From contig JAFLUF010000011.1 in NCBI GenBank assembly GCA_022508925.1, positions 1-38,623 of the forward strand: a DNA stretch of 38,623 nucleotides, written 5' to 3'. The translations under genes were made by a program, and so were the position numbers. The notes under the pieces were generated by a model. It did not search any database and was not told where the DNA came from. It was given only the letters and a program-made list of their open reading frames with translations. This document shows positions 1 through 5,494 of this stretch, piece after piece. Origin of the DNA: Oscillospiraceae bacterium. GTDB lineage: Bacteria; Bacillota; Clostridia; Oscillospirales; Ruminococcaceae. The stretch's first letter is position 1. Every line of letters begins with the position of its first letter.

Positions 1-90
1 TAAACCCTCATCTGCTTTGTCAGCCGTACCACGGCAACCAGATGGTTAGCCGTGGTACGGCTTTCGCGCATCTGAGGGCTTCTCGACAAC
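1..90. repeat. Structured hairpin repeat, copy 1 (5' end cut by window)
   Basis: First of three related elements (others at 1745-1847 and 4495-4603). Visible pairing: CCCTCA (5-10) with TGAGGG (73-78); a perfect 13-bp stem (23-35 with 49-61); and a 5-bp apical stem AACCA/TGGTT (36-40 with 43-47 region). The outer arm on the right begins at about GACAAC (85-90); its left partner lies outside the window. The element lies between an unseen upstream gene and the prfC ribosome binding site. It encodes no protein. Confidence 0.85.
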
Positions 91-124
91 CTGAAAAACT
101 GTAAATAATCCGGAGGAATAAAAC

Positions 125-1741
125 ATGTCCGATTTTAAGCACGAAATTGAACGCCGAAGGACGTTCGCCATAATTTCACACCCCGACGCGGGAAAAACAA
201 CGCTGACGGAAAAGTTTCTGCTTTACGGAGGCGCTATCGCCATGGCGGGCGCGGTAAAGGGAAAGAAAAACACAAGGCACGCGGTTTCCGACTGGATGGA
301 AATAGAAAAACAGCGCGGAATTTCCGTTACGTCGTCGGTCATGCAATTCAACTACAACGGCTTTTGCATAAATATCCTCGACACTCCCGGACACCAGGAC
401 TTTTCGGAGGACACATACAGAACGCTAATGGCGGCGGACAGCGCGGTTATGGTGATAGACGCGGCAAAGGGCGTGGAAAACCAGACGCGAAAGCTGTTTA
501 AGGTATGCGTTATGAGAAATATCCCTATCTTCACGTTTATCAACAAAATGGACAGAGAGAGCCGAAATCCGTTTGATCTGCTTGAGGAGATCGAACACGA
601 GCTTGGGATAAAGACCTATCCCGTAAACTGGCCGATAGGCTCGGGAAAGGATTTCAAGGGAGTTTACGACAGAGAAAACCGCAGGATAATCTCGTTTGAA
701 ATGAACGACGGGATGAACTACGGAACAAAAGAAGTCGCGGCAACAGAGGCTGACCTTAACGACGCGAACCTTGCGGAGCTTATCGGAGAGTCTAACTACA
801 ACACTCTCAAAGATGACGTGGAGCTTCTTGACGGAGCGAGCGAGGAATTTGACGCGGAGCTTGTAAACAACGGAAAGCTTTCGCCTGTGTTTTTCGGCTC
901 GGCGCTTACAAATTTCGGAGTAGAGCCGTTTCTTGAGAGCTTTTTGAAGATGACCTCTTCTCCCCTCCCAAGAAATACGGAAAGCGGAACGGTTGACCCG
1001 TTTGACGAGAATTTCTCGGCGTTTATCTTTAAGATACAGGCGAATATGAACAAGGCTCACCGTGACAGGATCGCGTTTATGAGAATCGTAAGCGGAAAAT
1101 TCACAAAGGAAATGGAAGTCCTGCACGTTCAGAACAACCGCGTTATGCGGCTTTCTCAGCCTCAGCAGATAATGGCAAATGACCGCGAGGTTATCGATGA
1201 GGCGTACGCGGGAGATATAATGGGCGTTTTTGACCCCGGAGTCTTCTCTATCGGCGACACGATCTGCGCGCCGAAAACAAAGCTTGTTTTCGAGGGTATT
1301 CCGACGTTTGCTCCCGAGCACTTTGCGCGTATCCGCCAGAAGGACACGCTGAAGAGAAAGCAGTTTATTAAAGGCACAACGCAGATAGCGCAGGAAGGCG
1401 CTATTCAGATATTCTCCGAGCCTCAGAGCGGATTTGAGGAGGTAATTGTCGGGGTTGTGGGCGTTTTACAGTTTGACGTATTGGAATACCGTCTGAAAAA
1501 CGAATACAACGTTGATATCATCCGCGAAGATCTGTCGTATGAATATATCCGCTGGATAACGAGCGAAAAGCATCTTTCGGGAGGACTTGACGAGCTGAAA
1601 AAGCTGGTGCTGACTTCCGATACAAAGCTTATTCAGGACGTCCGTGAAAACTATCTTTTGATCTTCACAAGCGAGTGGAACATAAAGTGGGCGCTTGACA
1701 AAAACGAGGGATTGGAGCTGGCGGAATTTAACAGGAATTAA
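125..1741 (+). CDS. prfC: Peptide chain release factor 3
   Basis: Class II release factor, a cytoplasmic GTPase that recycles RF1/RF2 from the ribosome after peptide release. The 538-residue length is close to the family norm (about 530). The N-terminal translational GTPase domain shows the P-loop SHPDAGKTTL (about residues 18-27), the RGISVTSSV switch region, DTPGHQDF (G3) and NKMD (G4). Later residues fit the EF-Tu-like domain 2 and the RF3 C-terminal domain. The start is supported by the Shine-Dalgarno GGAGG at 112-116. The gene stands alone between two copies of the structured repeat; no clear sigma-A promoter is visible in the 124 bp upstream, so it may be read from outside the window. 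Confidence 0.96.
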   Translation: MSDFKHEIERRRTFAIISHPDAGKTTLTEKFLLYGGAIAMAGAVKGKKNTRHAVSDWMEIEKQRGISVTSSVMQFNYNGFCINILDTPGHQDFSEDTYRTLMAADSAVMVIDAAKGVENQTRKLFKVCVMRNIPIFTFINKMDRESRNPFDLLEEIEHELGIKTYPVNWPIGSGKDFKGVYDRENRRIISFEMNDGMNYGTKEVAATEADLNDANLAELIGESNYNTLKDDVELLDGASEEFDAELVNNGKLSPVFFGSALTNFGVEPFLESFLKMTSSPLPRNTESGTVDPFDENFSAFIFKIQANMNKAHRDRIAFMRIVSGKFTKEMEVLHVQNNRVMRLSQPQQIMANDREVIDEAYAGDIMGVFDPGVFSIGDTICAPKTKLVFEGIPTFAPEHFARIRQKDTLKRKQFIKGTTQIAQEGAIQIFSEPQSGFEEVIVGVVGVLQFDVLEYRLKNEYNVDIIREDLSYEYIRWITSEKHLSGGLDELKKLVLTSDTKLIQDVRENYLLIFTSEWNIKWALDKNEGLELAEFNRN

Positions 1742-1744
1742 GTA

Positions 1745-1847
1745 AAACTGTCGATAAGCCCTCATCTGCGTTGTCACAGGCACCGCGGCAGGCACAAAGC
1801 CTAGCCGCGGCACCTGTTCCTAGCAGCTGAGGACTTCTCAACAGTTT
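1745..1847. repeat. Structured hairpin repeat, copy 2
   Basis: Begins 3 bp after the prfC stop. Outer arms AAACTGT (1745-1751) and ACAGTTT (1841-1847) pair perfectly; next come CCTCA/TGAGG, then an inner stem of about 14 bp with two C-A type mismatches (ACAGG..CCGCGGC with GCCGCGG..CCTGT), and an apical AGGC/GCCT hairpin. Compared with copies 1 and 3, several pairs change on both sides together. It may act as the prfC transcription terminator; a T-rich tract follows at about 1857-1868. Confidence 0.85.
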
Positions 1848-1945
1848 GAAAGCAGTCTTTATTTTTATATAAAATATGCTGTTCGATACATTTCGGGCAG
1901 TTTTTTCTTTTTTCTCCCCTTAATTACATAATACGACGGGCAAAT

Positions 1946-1978
1946 CTGGCAAAATACTCGATGATTTCGCTGTATAAT
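1946..1978 (+). promoter_or_regulatory. Candidate spoIIGA promoter with long spacer
   Basis: A perfect -10 TATAAT sits at 1973-1978, 24 bp before the spoIIGA start. No good -35 lies at 17 bp, but CTGGCA (1946-1951, 4/6 to TTGACA) lies 21 bp upstream. The B. subtilis spoIIG promoter is known to be a sigma-A promoter with an abnormally long spacer that depends on Spo0A. A 6/7 match to the reversed Spo0A box (TTCGATA, 1882-1888) lies further upstream. The Spo0A assignment is inference. Confidence 0.5.
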
Positions 1979-2001
1979 AAGTACAAGCGAGGTGAACTGC
2001 T

Positions 2002-2823
2002 GTGGTGATCTACGCAGATGTTTTAGTTGCGCTTAACCTGTACATAAACTTCTTTTTACTCCGGGGAACGGCTTTGCTTCTCAGGCGAGGTGTTTCGCGC
2101 AAAAGACTTGTACTTTCCGCATTTATCGGCGCGCTCGGAGCGCTTATAATACTCGCCCCCGAGCTTCACTTCGCGATCTCGGCGGTATACAAAATCGCCC
2201 TCGGCGCAGCAATGACCTTTGTTGCGTTTGGAAAACAGAAACCTTTGGATTTTACGATATGCGCGCTGTTCTTTCTGGTGGTGAATTTTATTTTCGCGGG
2301 TGTTATAAACGCGCTGTGGGTATTTTTCGCGCCTGCGGGAATGCTTTATGAAAACGGCATTTTTTATTTTAATATACCAATCGTGGCGCTTATCGCGTTT
2401 ACCGCCGCGGCGTTTTTCCTGATAAAGCTGATAAAGCTGATCTCAAAAAAGCTGAACAGAAAAGATAAGATCTGCGAGGTCAAAATAGCCGCAAATAATA
2501 CCGAGGTCTCGCTTAACGGACTGTGTGACACGGGCTGTAACGCGGAGGATCTGTTCAGCAAAACGCCTGTTATTATCTGCGAATATTATAAGATAACAAA
2601 AATCATTCCGCCGGATATTGAAAAATATTTCTCAAGCCTGTCGGTGGAAAAAATACGTCTTGTTCCTTTAAGTACCGCGTCGGGCGATACACTTATGCCG
2701 ATTTTCAGAGCGCAAAGCATATTGATAAACGGCAAGCCTGCGGACGCGCTTATAGGTGTGACAAAAACAAAACTCGGCATGGATATCGACTGTATATTCA
2801 ATCCGGAAATTATCTCATTATAG
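2002..2823 (+). CDS. spoIIGA: Sigma-E processing peptidase SpoIIGA
   Basis: Membrane-embedded aspartic protease that cleaves the pro-sequence from pro-sigma-E in the mother cell during sporulation. The 273-residue protein has an N-terminal half of about five hydrophobic segments (residues about 1-150) and a cytoplasmic protease half. The catalytic motif is visible as LCDTGCNAED (about residues 173-182), matching the D-T/S-G signature of SpoIIGA. The start is GTG at 2002 with GAGGTG as ribosome binding site. It is followed 12 bp later by sigE, its substrate, the conserved order in Bacillota. Expression is expected from the TATAAT-bearing promoter just upstream. Confidence 0.93.
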   Translation: MVIYADVLVALNLYINFFLLRGTALLLRRGVSRKRLVLSAFIGALGALIILAPELHFAISAVYKIALGAAMTFVAFGKQKPLDFTICALFFLVVNFIFAGVINALWVFFAPAGMLYENGIFYFNIPIVALIAFTAAAFFLIKLIKLISKKLNRKDKICEVKIAANNTEVSLNGLCDTGCNAEDLFSKTPVIICEYYKITKIIPPDIEKYFSSLSVEKIRLVPLSTASGDTLMPIFRAQSILINGKPADALIGVTKTKLGMDIDCIFNPEIISL

Positions 2824-2835
2824 GGGGAAATGGCT

Positions 2836-3543
2836 ATGCTGAAAAAATTTCTGAATAAAATACTCGGCATGTTTCGCCGTAAAAAAAAGAATTATGTTCA
2901 TTACATAAACAGTTCCGAACAGCTTCCCCCGCCGCTTTCAAAAGAGGAAGAAGAGGCCGCGCTTTTACTTCTGGACACGGATTTTGACAAGGCGAGAGAT
3001 ATGCTTATAGTACATAATCTCAGGCTTGTAGTTTATATCGCGAAGAAGTTTGAAAATACAGGGATATGGCTTGAGGATCTTACATCCATAGGCACAGTAG
3101 GGCTCATCAAGGCTGTAAGCACCTTCAGCAAGGATAAAAACATAAAGCTCGCTACATACGCGTCGCGCTGTATTGAAAATGAGATACTGATGTTTTTACG
3201 GAAATACAGTCAGTACAGATACGATGTTTCAATAGACGAGCCGCTTAATGTTGACTGGGACGGAAATGAGCTTTTGCTGTCGGACATTCTCGGAACGGAC
3301 AGCGACTGCGTAAACTCTCACATAGAAGAAGAGGTTGAAAAACAGCTTCTGCACGACGCGGTAAATCACCTTGGAGAGCGTGAAAAGAAAATTATGGAAA
3401 TGCGCTTCGGGCTTAACGGCTGTAAGGAAAAAACACAAAAAGAGGTAGCCGACGAGATAGGAATTTCACAAAGCTACATATCCCGTCTTGAAAAGCGCAT
3501 AATCAAACAGCTCAGAGAAGAGCTTGAAAAGGTATGCAATTAG
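2836..3543 (+). CDS. sigE: RNA polymerase sporulation sigma-E factor precursor
   Basis: Early mother-cell sigma factor made as an inactive precursor. The basic, hydrophobic pro-sequence ([14 protein letters not shown], about the first 20 residues) precedes the family hallmark [13 protein letters not shown]. Region 2 contains [16 protein letters not shown] and the -10 recognition segment [12 protein letters not shown]; the stretch [17 protein letters not shown] is almost invariant in SigE. Region 4 ends with the helix-turn-helix [15 protein letters not shown] chose ATG 2836 (235 residues) because the G5 Shine-Dalgarno (2823-2827) is 8 nt away; ATG 2830 in the same frame is only 2 nt away. Cleavage by SpoIIGA would fall in or just after the KKKNY segment, by analogy with B. 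subtilis. Confidence 0.95.
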
Positions 3544-3575
3544 AAGTCAGAAATTAGAGATCAGAGGTAAGAAAC
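3541..3575 (+). repeat. Heptanucleotide array, consensus YAGARRT, five units
   Basis: Five consecutive 7-mers start exactly at the sigE stop codon: TAGAAGT, CAGAAAT, TAGAGAT, CAGAGGT, AAGAAAC. The same heptamers occur on the other strand at 8380-8428 and 22039-22073. Function unknown. Confidence 0.75.
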
Positions 3576-3585
3576 AGTTGTGTTT

Positions 3586-3615
3586 AAGGCTCTGCTTTAC
3601 TGCAGAGCCTTTTTC
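3586..3615 (+). terminator. Rho-independent terminator after sigE
   Basis: Perfect 8-bp stem GGCTCTGC (3588-3595) with GCAGAGCC (3602-3609), six-base loop, flanked by AA/TT pairing and followed by a run of five T. It separates sigE from sigG, consistent with independent transcription of sigG. Confidence 0.9.
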
Positions 3616-3657
3616 ACTTTATAAAAATACATCATTCATTAAATTTCATTTTTTTAA

Positions 3658-3687
3658 GAATATCCTGACCGCTTAATGACAATAATA
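3658..3687 (+). promoter_or_regulatory. Candidate sigma-F/sigma-G promoter of sigG
   Basis: GAATA (3658-3662) matches the forespore -35 pattern G-H-A-T-R. After 18 bp, AATAATA (3681-3687) matches 6/7 of the sigma-G -10 CATHMTA. Read as sigma-F, the 10-mer at 3678-3687 with a 15-bp spacer matches 8/10 of GGHRARMHTX. The predicted transcript starts about 25 bp before the sigG TTG codon. Sigma-F and sigma-G are known to transcribe sigG in B. subtilis. Confidence 0.55.
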
Positions 3688-3719
3688 CTTGTACATTAAA
3701 GTAAGGTCGGGGTGGTTTT

Positions 3720-4490
3720 TTGTACTACAACAAGGTTGAAATAAGCGGTGTAAACACAAGCAAGCTTAAAGTCCTGAAGGAAGCGGAAAAAACCGAGCTT
3801 CTGAAAAAGGTAAAGCAAGGCGATATGAACGCCCGCGAGGAGCTTATCCGCGGAAATCTCAGACTTGTTTTGAGTGTCATACAGAGGTTTACAAATCGCG
3901 GAGAAAGCGCTGACGACCTGTTTCAGGTGGGCTGTATCGGGCTGATAAAAGCAATAGACAACTTCGATATTTCACAGCAGGTAAGGTTTTCCACTTATGC
4001 CGTGCCGATGATAATGGGCGAACTCAGAAGATATCTGAGAGACAATACTTCTGTTCGTGTAAGCCGCTCGATGAGAGACCTTGCGTATAAGGCAATGCAG
4101 GCAAAGGAAAAGCTCACAGCCCAAAACGGCCGCGAGCCTAAAATCGAGGAAATAGCAAAGGAAATCGACGCGCCGCGAAAGAACGTCGTAATCGCGCTTG
4201 AAGCGATAAGCGAACCCATCTCGCTTTATGAGCCGGTATTCAGCGAATCGGGAGACACTATTTATGTCCTTGACCAGCTCGGAGACCATAACGACGATAT
4301 GAACTGGCTTAACGAAATATCACTCAAGGAAGCCATAGCTCAGCTTGGAAAACGCGAAAAGCGGATATTAAATCTGAGATTTTTCAGAGGAAAAACTCAG
4401 GTAGAAGTGGCAAAGGAAATCGGCATAAGTCAGGCTCAGGTGTCAAGACTTGAAAAGGGCGCGCTTGATAAGATCAAGAATCGGATATGA
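3720..4490 (+). CDS. sigG: RNA polymerase sporulation sigma-G factor
   Basis: Late forespore sigma factor, 256 residues. Near-diagnostic segments are KVEISGVNTSKLKVL at the N terminus, GNLRLVLSVIQRF and DDLFQVGCIGLIKAIDNFD (region 2), FSTYAVPMIMGELRRYLRD, SVRVSRSMRDLAYKA (region 3) and ISQAQVSRLEKGAL (region 4 helix-turn-helix). The start is TTG at 3720, preceded by GGGGTGG as ribosome binding site; no in-frame ATG lies nearby. It follows spoIIGA-sigE as in most Clostridia and Bacilli but has its own promoter candidate after the sigE terminator. Confidence 0.96.
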   Translation: MYYNKVEISGVNTSKLKVLKEAEKTELLKKVKQGDMNAREELIRGNLRLVLSVIQRFTNRGESADDLFQVGCIGLIKAIDNFDISQQVRFSTYAVPMIMGELRRYLRDNTSVRVSRSMRDLAYKAMQAKEKLTAQNGREPKIEEIAKEIDAPRKNVVIALEAISEPISLYEPVFSESGDTIYVLDQLGDHNDDMNWLNEISLKEAIAQLGKREKRILNLRFFRGKTQVEVAKEIGISQAQVSRLEKGALDKIKNRI

Positions 4491-4494
4491 CCGA

Positions 4495-4603
4495 TTCAAA
4501 ATGCCGATAAACCCTCATCTGCTTTGTCAGCCGCGCCACGGCAGGCACAAAGCCTAGCCGTGGCACGGCTTTCGTGCATCTGAGGGCTTCTCAACATTTT
4601 GAA
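4495..4603. repeat. Structured hairpin repeat, copy 3
   Basis: Starts 4 bp after the sigG stop and lies between the convergent sigG and popT genes. Outer arms TTCAAAATG (4495-4503) and CATTTTGAA (4595-4603) form nine perfect pairs. CCCTCA/TGAGGG follows, then a 13-bp stem with one C-A mismatch, then an apical AGGC/GCCT hairpin. The core is most like copy 1, the apical loop most like copy 2, and the outer arms like neither. It may work as a two-way terminator; five T follow on the + strand (4611-4615). Confidence 0.85.
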
Positions 4604-4615
4604 AGTGTACTTTTT

Positions 4616-5494
4616 CTACAAACTTGCATCGGATTTAACCGTTTTTTCTCCGCCATCGGTCTTACCTATCCTTTCAAACAATACCGAGGCAATTACTCCT
4701 AAAATCAGACATACAAATCCGTAACCCGTGTCCAGATTAAATCCGAAGCCCTCCGGCAGAATAGCGTATACCGAGCCTACTACAAGACCCATAAGCGCCG
4801 AATACACCATAAGGCGATTTTTATTTATAAGCATTGATATAAGCTTAGCACCTAAGATTATTCCCAAAACGGCTCCGACAGCAAACGGTATGATCACCCA
4901 GAAGTTAAGATCCTTAAGCGCGCCGATTATCGTTTCATAAACGCCTAAAAGCATCATTACAAACGAACCGGAAATTCCGGGAATGATCATCGTTACTGCC
5001 GCAAGCGCCGCGCAGCCGATCAATTTCAGTGAAAATACAAGATCAAATCCCGTTATCGACTCCTCAAAACCAAGCGAAAGAATATCGAGTCTATCAAGCA
5101 CGGAAAGACCGATAACAACTGCCATTGCAATTACGAAAGGCAAGACGCAAAGCGGCTTTGCCTTTTTTTCGGTCGTGCCTATTTTGTAAATAAGCGGAAT
5201 GCCGCCTAAAATAAGTCCGATAAAGAACATATTTGTCTGCACCCCGAACATATCAAACATCGATGAGATGACCTTTGCCGAAATAAGTATTCCCGAACCC
5301 GCGCCCAAGCCGAACGCAATTAGAAACGGCAGGTTTTTGACAATGCTCTTGATCCCCGAGATAGACTCGGTAAGTTTGTCGAAAACTCCGAATATGACAA
5401 GCATAGTGCCGCCGCTTACTCCGGGAATAACATTTGCCGTACCGAAAACAAGTCCGCTCAAAAAATATCTGATATATTGGGCAAAACCTTTCAT
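4616..5494 (-). CDS. popT: DUF368 polyprenyl-phosphate translocase, PopT-like
   Basis: Multi-pass membrane protein of the DUF368 family, 292 residues, the usual length. Members (PopT) are reported to return undecaprenyl phosphate, the lipid carrier of peptidoglycan and wall polymers, from the outer to the inner leaflet. The two internally related family signatures are visible: ANVIPGVSGGTMLVIFGVFD (about residues 20-39) and TMIIPGISGSFVMMLLGVYE (about 163-182), each inside a hydrophobic repeat half. Its ATG overlaps the stop of the upstream P-type ATPase homologue by 4 bp (ATGA), so translation of the two is likely coupled. The C-terminal tail is short and polar. The symbol is by family assignment only. 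Confidence 0.85.
   Translation of the reverse strand: MKGFAQYIRYFLSGLVFGTANVIPGVSGGTMLVIFGVFDKLTESISGIKSIVKNLPFLIAFGLGAGSGILISAKVISSMFDMFGVQTNMFFIGLILGGIPLIYKIGTTEKKAKPLCVLPFVIAMAVVIGLSVLDRLDILSLGFEESITGFDLVFSLKLIGCAALAAVTMIIPGISGSFVMMLLGVYETIIGALKDLNFWVIIPFAVGAVLGIILGAKLISMLINKNRLMVYSALMGLVVGSVYAILPEGFGFNLDTGYGFVCLILGVIASVLFERIGKTDGGEKTVKSDASL

What the first reader, a model, noticed from the sequence alone, without database searches (positions are those of the whole stretch)
1..4603. Three dispersed copies of a nested-hairpin element with compensatory changes in every helix
Copies at 1-90, 1745-1847 and 4495-4603 keep the CCCTCA/TGAGGG collar and nearby loop sequence. Elsewhere they change sequence on both sides so that pairing is kept. 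The inner stem is CCACGGC/GCCGTGG in copies 1 and 3 but CCGCGGC/GCCGCGG in copy 2; GCCGT/ACGGC in copy 1 is replaced by ACAGG/CCTGT in copy 2; the apical stem is AACCA/TGGTT in copy 1 and AGGC/GCCT in the other two. Covariation across three helices points to selection on a folded RNA or DNA structure, not simple copying. I do not recognise it as a known REP, ERIC or MITE family.
Basis: seen in the sequence. Interest (0 to 1): 0.8.

Follow-up and report, generated by a model that had tools for sequence, protein, structure and literature searches.

The report
Mobile hairpin repeat with conserved core
The three look-alike stretches are copies of a small jumping DNA element that folds into a long hairpin and tends to sit between genes; its ends match a jumping gene found in related bacteria, while its hairpin core, kept foldable by paired mutations, also turns up in far more distant bacteria.

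Summary
Copies lie at 1-94, 1743-1849 and 4496-4602, all on the minus strand; copy 1 is cut by the contig end. The home genome has 51 such places and 40 of 43 genomes of the genus have a match. Covariation is strong: 25 of 43 pairs change on both sides in 23 copies, reached by 0 of 500 shuffles. Wobble pairs outnumber their mirror mismatches 227 to 50 on one strand, so a single-stranded fold seems to be selected. It is also a mobile element. Its ends (CAGNYTGTATAAAAAGTC) resemble those of IS1182-family insertion sequences in two genomes of the genus. Those two, and six clear element copies, are flanked by 21-34 bp direct repeats that are themselves inverted repeats, several terminator-like. 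'Not simple copying' is half right: these are transposed copies whose fold is conserved. The core recurs outside the genus with other ends: other families of the order, two other families of the phylum, and ten matches in a Desulfatifera genome. Rfam has no match. I call it a new MITE family, probably IS1182-mobilised, carrying a conserved RNA-like core of unknown activity.

The parts
1..94 (-). copy 1 of the hairpin element, truncated by the contig start
   Evidence: R1 match 91.8 bits, cut off at 3' end; BLAST
95..112 (-). tail of copy 1 (upstream of the hairpin on the minus strand)
   Evidence: absent from the empty site in G012, present in G011
113..122 (.). GAGGAATAAA, one arm of the 10-bp direct repeat that flanks this insertion in relative G011 (other arm lies off this contig)
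1743..1849 (-). copy 2 of the hairpin element, between prfC and spoIIGA
   Evidence: R1 109.5 bits
4496..4602 (-). copy 3 of the hairpin element, between convergent sigG and a polyprenyl-phosphate transporter-like gene
   Evidence: R1 121.4 bits; fold z -11.2
4603..4626 (-). tail of copy 3, minus strand CAAGTTTGTAGAAAAAGTACACTT, a diverged left terminal inverted repeat
4480..4493 (.). ATCGGATATGACCG, possible target duplication arm of copy 3, itself an inverted repeat (weak)
   Evidence: score 9.0, a score that about 4 of 119 pairs would reach by chance
4628..4641 (.). ATCGGATTTAACCG followed by a T run, the other arm (weak)
125..1741 (+). prfC, peptide chain release factor 3 (neighbour)
   Evidence: NF001964 759.6 bits
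2002..2823 (+). spoIIGA-like (neighbour)
   Evidence: PF03419 171.2 bits; below the NCBIfam cut-off
2830..3543 (+). sigE (neighbour)
   Evidence: NF006158 363.5 bits, over cut-off
3720..4490 (+). sigG (neighbour)
   Evidence: NF006071 418.6 bits, over cut-off
4616..5494 (-). undecaprenyl/polyprenyl-phosphate translocase-like gene (neighbour; the open frame overlaps the tail of copy 3)
   Evidence: PF04018 140.4 bits

Best explanation
The three copies belong to a non-autonomous transposable element (a MITE) of about 131 bp: a left inverted repeat CAGNYTGTATAAAAAGTC, about 6 nt, then a 107-nt hairpin ending in CAGTCTGA. An IS1182-family transposase, encoded by insertion sequences with similar ends in related genomes, moves it in trans. 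As reported for IS1272, that transposase seems to choose inverted repeats, often terminator-like stem-loops, and here it duplicates the target hairpin on both sides. (Shown: similar ends, duplicated hairpins, a filled/empty site pair. Inferred: that this transposase acts on this MITE.) The inside of the hairpin was not seen in the insertion sequences. It is a conserved single-stranded fold, read on the strand opposite to the window's plus strand: stems free to change in a paired way around fixed purine-rich internal loops (CAGAUGC..GRAA / UGACRAA..GCAGAUG). The same core occurs with other ends elsewhere, so it probably serves the element itself, either as a folded RNA or as a single-stranded DNA hairpin recognised during transposition (inferred).
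For: Dispersed: 51 places in the home genome, 40 of 43 genomes of the genus, home included, with 0 to 81 match rows each. Intergenic: 42 of 48 outside ORFs of about 100 aa or more, random points 15% outside; orientation relative to tandem flanking genes 11 same, 15 opposite. Mobile: site 1 is filled in G011 with a 10-bp direct repeat GAGGAATAAA and empty in G012; of 18 further relatives' loci, two that fitted a simple pattern (L158, L159) are also empty and 16 were not judged. Target duplication: 6 of 119 flank pairs (one from the home genome, five from relatives) reach a direct-repeat score of 16 or more against 0 of 14,042 mismatched pairings; 11 of 119 reach 10 against 1.3 expected; all six start at the first base after the element and are inverted repeats. 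Partner: NF033551 over cut-off in 3 of 43 genomes. L273 has a 476-aa frame (379.1 bits, profile 8-487 of 488) between ends CAGCTTGTCCAAAAACCC / CAGTCTGTATATAAACCC, flanked by a perfect 34-bp inverted-repeat duplication; L274 has a 407-aa frame (301.2 bits, profile 57-486) between CAGCCTGTCGAAAAAGTC / CAGTCTGTCGAAAAACGG, flanked by a perfect 21-bp one. R2 finds no core in either. Sites within 2 mismatches of the end pattern: 9 of 30 IS1182 loci (7 distinct places), 0 of 18 IS30 loci. Fold; 227 G-U against 50 A-C cells, by pair 26 against 9, p 0.006, and the same direction for changes from G-C (112:28) and from A-T (98:21). Precedent for inverted-repeat targeting by IS1272 of the IS1182 family: PMC5678879 and PMC4923244 (passages).
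Against: Of the ten genomes with 48 or more match rows, eight, the home genome included (G000, G011, G013, G028, G030, G032, G034, G040), show no IS1182 match; G039 has one partial match and only G033 has a complete one. The third hit over cut-off (G015, L275) shows no such ends within 4 mismatches except one distant stray site. The ends are similar, not identical: against the pattern L273 has 2 and 1 mismatches, L274 1 and 4. Such sites also occur in 4 of 20 prfC-spoIIGA loci, all four of which hold an element copy. 108 of 119 flank pairs score below 10, so most copies show no convincing duplication. The left tail is recognisable in only 8 of 47 home copies and 24 of 75 others (controls 0-1). 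The cited IS1272 work mostly reports replacement or loss of the stem-loop without duplication, unlike here; duplication is one branch of the PMC5678879 model. Copy relatedness inflates shuffle tests. The wobble excess is concentrated in a few pairs and in the inner stem is only 8 pairs to 6. No transcript was seen.
Confidence: 0.77

Rival explanations
1. The core is a functional small RNA or mRNA-processing element (as with transcribed MITE hairpins), and the transposon ends are only its vehicle; selection is on the host-useful or element-useful RNA.
For: G-U against A-C excess on one strand; conserved internal loops; extra helices inserted at one internal loop, giving branched folds in all 20 long copies folded (by eye); the same core with other ends outside the genus.
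Against: Orientation relative to flanking genes is near random (11 same, 15 opposite); no promoter or transcript shown; no Rfam family.
Confidence: 0.35
2. The pairing is kept without selection, by template switching between the two arms (quasi-palindrome correction), which copies a mutation from one arm to the other.
For: The covariation reaches the very ends, where copies swap CAGACTG/CAGTCTG for CACACTG/CAGTGTG or CAGAGCG/CGCTCTG, which a transposase alone would not need.
Against: Such correction should also erase the internal mismatches, yet the G.A positions are kept, and it predicts no G-U excess on one strand.
Confidence: 0.15
3. The element is moved by an IS30-family enzyme of the IS1630 type, which (recalled, not read) also duplicates inverted repeats.
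For: Long duplications of inverted repeats.
Against: IS30 hits in 8 of 43 genomes, and of the ten copy-rich ones only in G028; no matching ends beside them, 0 of 18 loci within 2 mismatches.
Confidence: 0.03
4. It is an ordinary REP/ERIC/BOX-like repeat or a set of terminators with chance similarity.
For: Small, palindromic, intergenic.
Against: Sequence-conserved 107-nt unit with fixed loops, terminal repeats and duplications; no Rfam match. ERIC and BOX sequences themselves were not compared outside Rfam.
Confidence: 0.04

Closest known systems
IS1272 / IS1182-family insertion sequences (PMC5678879, PMC4923244; passages read)
   Same: Family of the transposase with similar ends; inverted repeats and terminators as targets
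   Different: Those passages report loss or replacement of the target stem-loop and no target duplication (duplication only as a branch of the PMC5678879 model); here the whole stem-loop is duplicated, and the element encodes nothing
Bacterial MITEs in general (review PMC10969869, passages read)
   Same: Short, non-coding, terminal inverted repeats, direct repeats, intergenic
   Different: The inside is a conserved fold with fixed internal loops that is shared with elements bearing other ends
ERIC and pneumococcal BOX repeats (mostly recalled; named in PMC10969869 passages)
   Same: About 100-130 nt, foldable, modular, intergenic
   Different: No Rfam match; other ends; a candidate partner transposase identified here
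CORE-SINEs of animals (recalled analogy only)
   Same: A central domain shared by mobile elements with unrelated ends
   Different: Retroposons of eukaryotes; no relation claimed

Membership tests
MITE | short non-coding element with terminal inverted repeats, many copies | tested here: met
   the left repeat is recognisable in only 8 of 47 home copies
MITE | target duplication / empty site | tested here: met
   clear in 6 of 119 flank pairs, possible in three more with score 10 or above at the right place (L126, L081, L093 6188); site 1 empty in G012
MITE of the IS1182 family | ends shared with an autonomous IS1182-family element | tested here: met
   L273 (2 and 1 mismatches to the end pattern) and, more loosely, L274 (1 and 4 mismatches); not for L275
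MITE of the IS1182 family | mobilised in trans by that transposase | not testable with these tools
   needs a transposition assay
IS1272-type targeting | target is an inverted repeat | tested here: met
IS1272-type targeting | target stem-loop deleted, no duplication | tested here: not met
   duplicated in 6 clear copies and 2 insertion sequences
IS30/IS1630-type | IS30 transposase with matching ends | tested here: not met
Rfam family | match at gathering score | tested here: not met
   0 in window; one irrelevant miRNA-model hit at E 0.29 in 9 outside loci
REP (RAYT-associated) | 20-40 bp palindrome with GTAG-type foot beside a RAYT gene | not tested
   size and ends do not fit; RAYT genes were not searched
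Structured RNA | covariation beyond controls | tested here: met
   R-scape itself not available, relatedness not corrected
Structured RNA | transcript from the folded strand | not testable with these tools
   no RNA data

The most novel reading that the evidence does not exclude
A folded RNA (or single-stranded DNA) domain, conserved in loops and free in stems, is carried by mobile elements with unrelated ends in several families of one phylum and in a Desulfatifera genome, like the shared central domain of some animal SINEs. It would be a selfish or host-useful structured nucleic acid that changes transposase partners.
Probability: 0.35. Interest if true: 0.8.

Novelty: new variant of a known kind. 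Interest (0 to 1): 0.6.

Why it matters
It links structure-seeking transposition (IS1182/IS1272) to a family of small repeats, shows natural cases where terminator-like hairpins are duplicated rather than lost, and offers a conserved fold in bacterial MITEs whose purpose can be tested. It also warns that dispersed repeats can give RNA-grade covariation.

Tried and rejected
IS30/IS1630 as the partner: searched and rejected. A search for two opposed ends 0.5-5 kb apart in 273 fetched sequences (1.1 Mb) listed many pairs; I followed only the one with the best ends, L138 3605-6478, which turned out to be two other small MITEs around two ordinary genes; the other pairs were not examined. Rfam at permissive threshold: only chance-like matches. 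Viral contigs: 2 pattern hits, neither an R1 or R2 match. Of the 56 genome-contig loci found with an 18-base pattern, 29 carry an R1 match at E 0.1 or better; one of these (L145, E 0.06) lies away from the pattern and is probably chance. I take most of the other 27 as chance hits of a short pattern. A promoter in the conserved tail was considered but not tested. A joined-flank search for further empty sites was planned and not run. Counts in the family, order and phylum searches are lower bounds, because only 12-15 candidates per genome were scored. R2 was trained on four outside sequences (L109, L303-L305) and R3 on more, and the models include the loops, so loop conservation in the hits (27 of 40 with both loop patterns) is partly by construction. 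A6, used for R3, contained two off-target rows (L063 plus strand, L305 minus strand). From the duplication test I dropped L143 (three tandem copies) and copies with flanks running off a contig: 119 of 124 kept. The 48 home copies leave out three of the 51 places, which are cut by a contig end (C13:1, C101:1, C108:9045). Two flank pairs scoring 10 or 11 (L076, L113) have their repeats away from the element ends and are probably chance.
Full report
WHAT WAS CHECKED. The window is bases 1-38623 of contig C13 of a 2.18 Mb draft genome in 136 contigs, 89.85% complete. The three copies exist; the covariance model places them at 1-94, 1743-1849 and 4496-4602, all on the minus strand. Copy 1 is cut because the contig starts in it. 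They lie upstream of prfC, between prfC and spoIIGA, and between the convergent sigG and a polyprenyl-phosphate transporter-like gene. Both strands fold well, the minus strand better, because several A.C mismatches on plus are G.U pairs on minus.

ANATOMY. Aligning 23 full copies of this genome gives a 107-nt hairpin: ends TCAGACTG...CAGTCTGA; a G.A mismatch in GAGAAG/CTTATC; a tandem G.A in CAGATGC/GCAGATG; an internal loop GCGAAA or nAGGAA against TGACRAA; a variable inner stem; and an apical loop, TTTGTG in most. Upstream on the same strand many copies carry a tail CAGNYTGTATAAAAAGTC plus about 6 nt: 8 of 47 home copies and 24 of 75 others within 4 mismatches, controls 0-1. Shorter (43-103 nt) and longer (118-173 nt) forms occur. 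Twenty longer copies were folded singly; they carry extra hairpins in the GCGAAA/TGACRAA internal loop, on either side, and all twenty folds are branched (by eye). At site 1 the short form (this genome) and a long form (G011) are orthologous.

COVARIATION. 95.6% of cells pair, 25 of 43 pairs change on both sides, 0 of 500 shuffles reach any of the five measures, and slid structures give 32-44% paired. For the core alone, 47 sequences including four from outside the genus give 94.4% and 23 of 28 pairs. With 44 rows including more outside hits, 90.1% and 25 of 28, on an alignment fitted to the structure and containing two off-target rows. The shuffles do not correct for relatedness and R-scape was not available. 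In 93 distinct full-length copies, G-U cells outnumber A-C cells 227 to 50; from G-C 112:28, from A-T 98:21; by pair 26 to 9, p 0.006. The excess is concentrated in a few pairs (10/98, 16/92, 38/69, 39/68), and in the inner stem the count by pair is only 8 to 6. I read this as selection on one strand's fold.

DISTRIBUTION. 51 distinct places in the home genome at E 1 or better (96 rows, most of them both strands of one place); one search adds a BLAST-only piece near the start of C26 and one near the end of C44. 40 of 43 genomes of the genus, home included, have a match. In 247 genomes drawn from the family, 7 match with the full model, 4 of them of the genus. With the core model, 11 of 394 in the order match: 3 of the genus, 5 genomes of four other genera of the family, and 3 of three other families. 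With R3, 7 of 398 in the phylum match: the home genome, one of the order, four of one outside genus and one of another family. A Candidatus Desulfatifera sulfidica genome, found through a pattern scan of named genomes, has 10 matches at E 0.01 or better, the weakest 24.6 bits. The other-family hits were not in the R2 training set, nor the outside hits in that of R3; L109, L304 and L305 were in both, L303 (the same copy as L311) likewise. E-values from these models are rough. In the home genome 42 of 48 tested copies avoid mechanically called ORFs of about 100 aa or more, against 15% of random points; of 40 classifiable, tandem 26, convergent 8, divergent 6; orientation 11 same and 15 opposite.

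MOBILITY. In G011 the insertion at site 1 is bracketed by GAGGAATAAA; G012 has GAGGAATAAAG followed directly by the gene start; L158 and L159 are also empty, and 16 other relatives' loci did not fit the pattern used and were not judged. Of 119 flank pairs, six have direct repeats scoring 16 or more (L044 from the home genome; L082, L089, L199, L207, L208 from relatives), with 22-28 bp hairpins, each starting at the first base after the right end and each an inverted repeat; no mismatched pairing reaches this. Most other copies show none, as expected for old insertions, but that is an assumption. Window copy 3 has a weak case (ATCGGATATGACCG / ATCGGATTTAACCG). At site 2 the relatives G011 and G012 carry another repeat.

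PARTNER. IS30 was tried first and failed. The IS1182 model NF033551 has hits in 16 of 43 genomes, over its cut-off in 3. L273 (G033) is 1551 bp with a 476-aa frame covering nearly the whole profile and a perfect 34-bp duplicated inverted repeat; L274 (G025) is 1532 bp with a 407-aa frame that begins at profile position 57, so its N-terminus may be missing, and a perfect 21-bp duplication. Their ends resemble the MITE ends, with 1-4 mismatches to the pattern; neither holds the core. In 30 IS1182 loci 9 (7 distinct places) have a site within 2 mismatches, in 18 IS30 loci none, in 8 outside-genus core loci none, and in 20 prfC-spoIIGA loci 4, all four holding an element copy. G033 holds both many MITE copies and the insertion sequence; eight of ten copy-rich genomes, the home genome included, have no IS1182 match, so their copies may be relics or use a missing or lost enzyme. 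L275 has no such ends. Passages of PMC5678879 and PMC4923244 report that IS1272, of the IS1182 family, targets stem-loops including terminators, deleting them in whole or part; a duplication branch exists in the PMC5678879 model.

BEYOND THE GENUS. The outside hits mostly keep CAGAUGC..AGGAA / UGAC..GCAGAUG while stems and ends differ. Their outer ends read, for example, GGGCGYATCTGAAAA, TATGGGCATCTCTAAAAACCC or TATACTAATATCTAATTAAAA (by eye). The first resembles IS5-type ends with 3-bp target repeats from memory only; no transposase was sought for these. In Desulfatifera and in the outside genus g441 the outer arms differ between copies yet look complementary within each (by eye, not counted). 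So the core seems to travel with different ends. Because the model contains the loops, loop conservation in the hits is partly by construction (27 of 40 satisfy both loop patterns).

MECHANISM AND VERDICT. Shown: a dispersed element, a filled/empty site, duplicated inverted repeats in some copies, ends like those of IS1182-family insertion sequences, covarying stems and strand bias. Inferred: trans-mobilisation by IS1182; single-stranded fold recognition or an RNA role. Arm-to-arm template switching could make some paired changes but does not explain kept mismatches or the wobble bias. Near-random orientation to genes speaks against a simple role in neighbouring mRNAs. Literature: eight searches, of which paired IS1182 with MITE, palindrome, terminator or stem-loop terms; in the listed titles and abstract starts I saw no report of this family. 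Only open-licence papers are held, and I read passages of four papers. Novelty: new variant of a known kind.

Noticed in passing
L149 3124-3343 and L150 1934-2344 (relatives G011, G012, orthologous to window 1741-1881): At the site of window copy 2 these relatives hold a different repeat bounded by GTACAAAAAGTCTTTGG, whose ends resemble the same terminal repeat; the intergenic site seems to turn over.
   Followed up: partly
L138 3605-3800 and 6366-6478: Two copies of another small element with ends CARNYTGTA..; the first is flanked by a 26-bp duplicated terminator-like hairpin GGAGCGCCGTTTACGGACGCTCCCTG.
   Followed up: partly
L238, L243, L264 near 1501: Further small elements with similar terminal repeats but unrelated interiors, suggesting several MITE types share one transposase.
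   Followed up: partly
L143 4123-4443: Three head-to-tail copies of the hairpin at 107-bp spacing with changed ends (GCAGACAG).
   Followed up: no
L017, L020, L023, L029, L170-L172, L178 and others: Extra hairpins of at least three kinds are nested in the core's internal loop, on either side of it.
   Followed up: partly
L343 around 1501-1592: About 25-bp direct repeat TTAATGAGCCGCTGAACGGAC.. flanks a distant core copy in another family of the phylum, with a layout like that in the genus.
   Followed up: no
window 1; G000 contigs C101, C12, C26, C108: Several contigs begin or end in or next to a copy, so the repeat breaks the assembly and the copy number is a lower bound.
   Followed up: no
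L109 (JACNLK010000088.1) 2145-2253: The core in Candidatus Desulfatifera sulfidica, with ten matches in that genome and copy-specific yet complementary-looking outer arms.
   Followed up: partly
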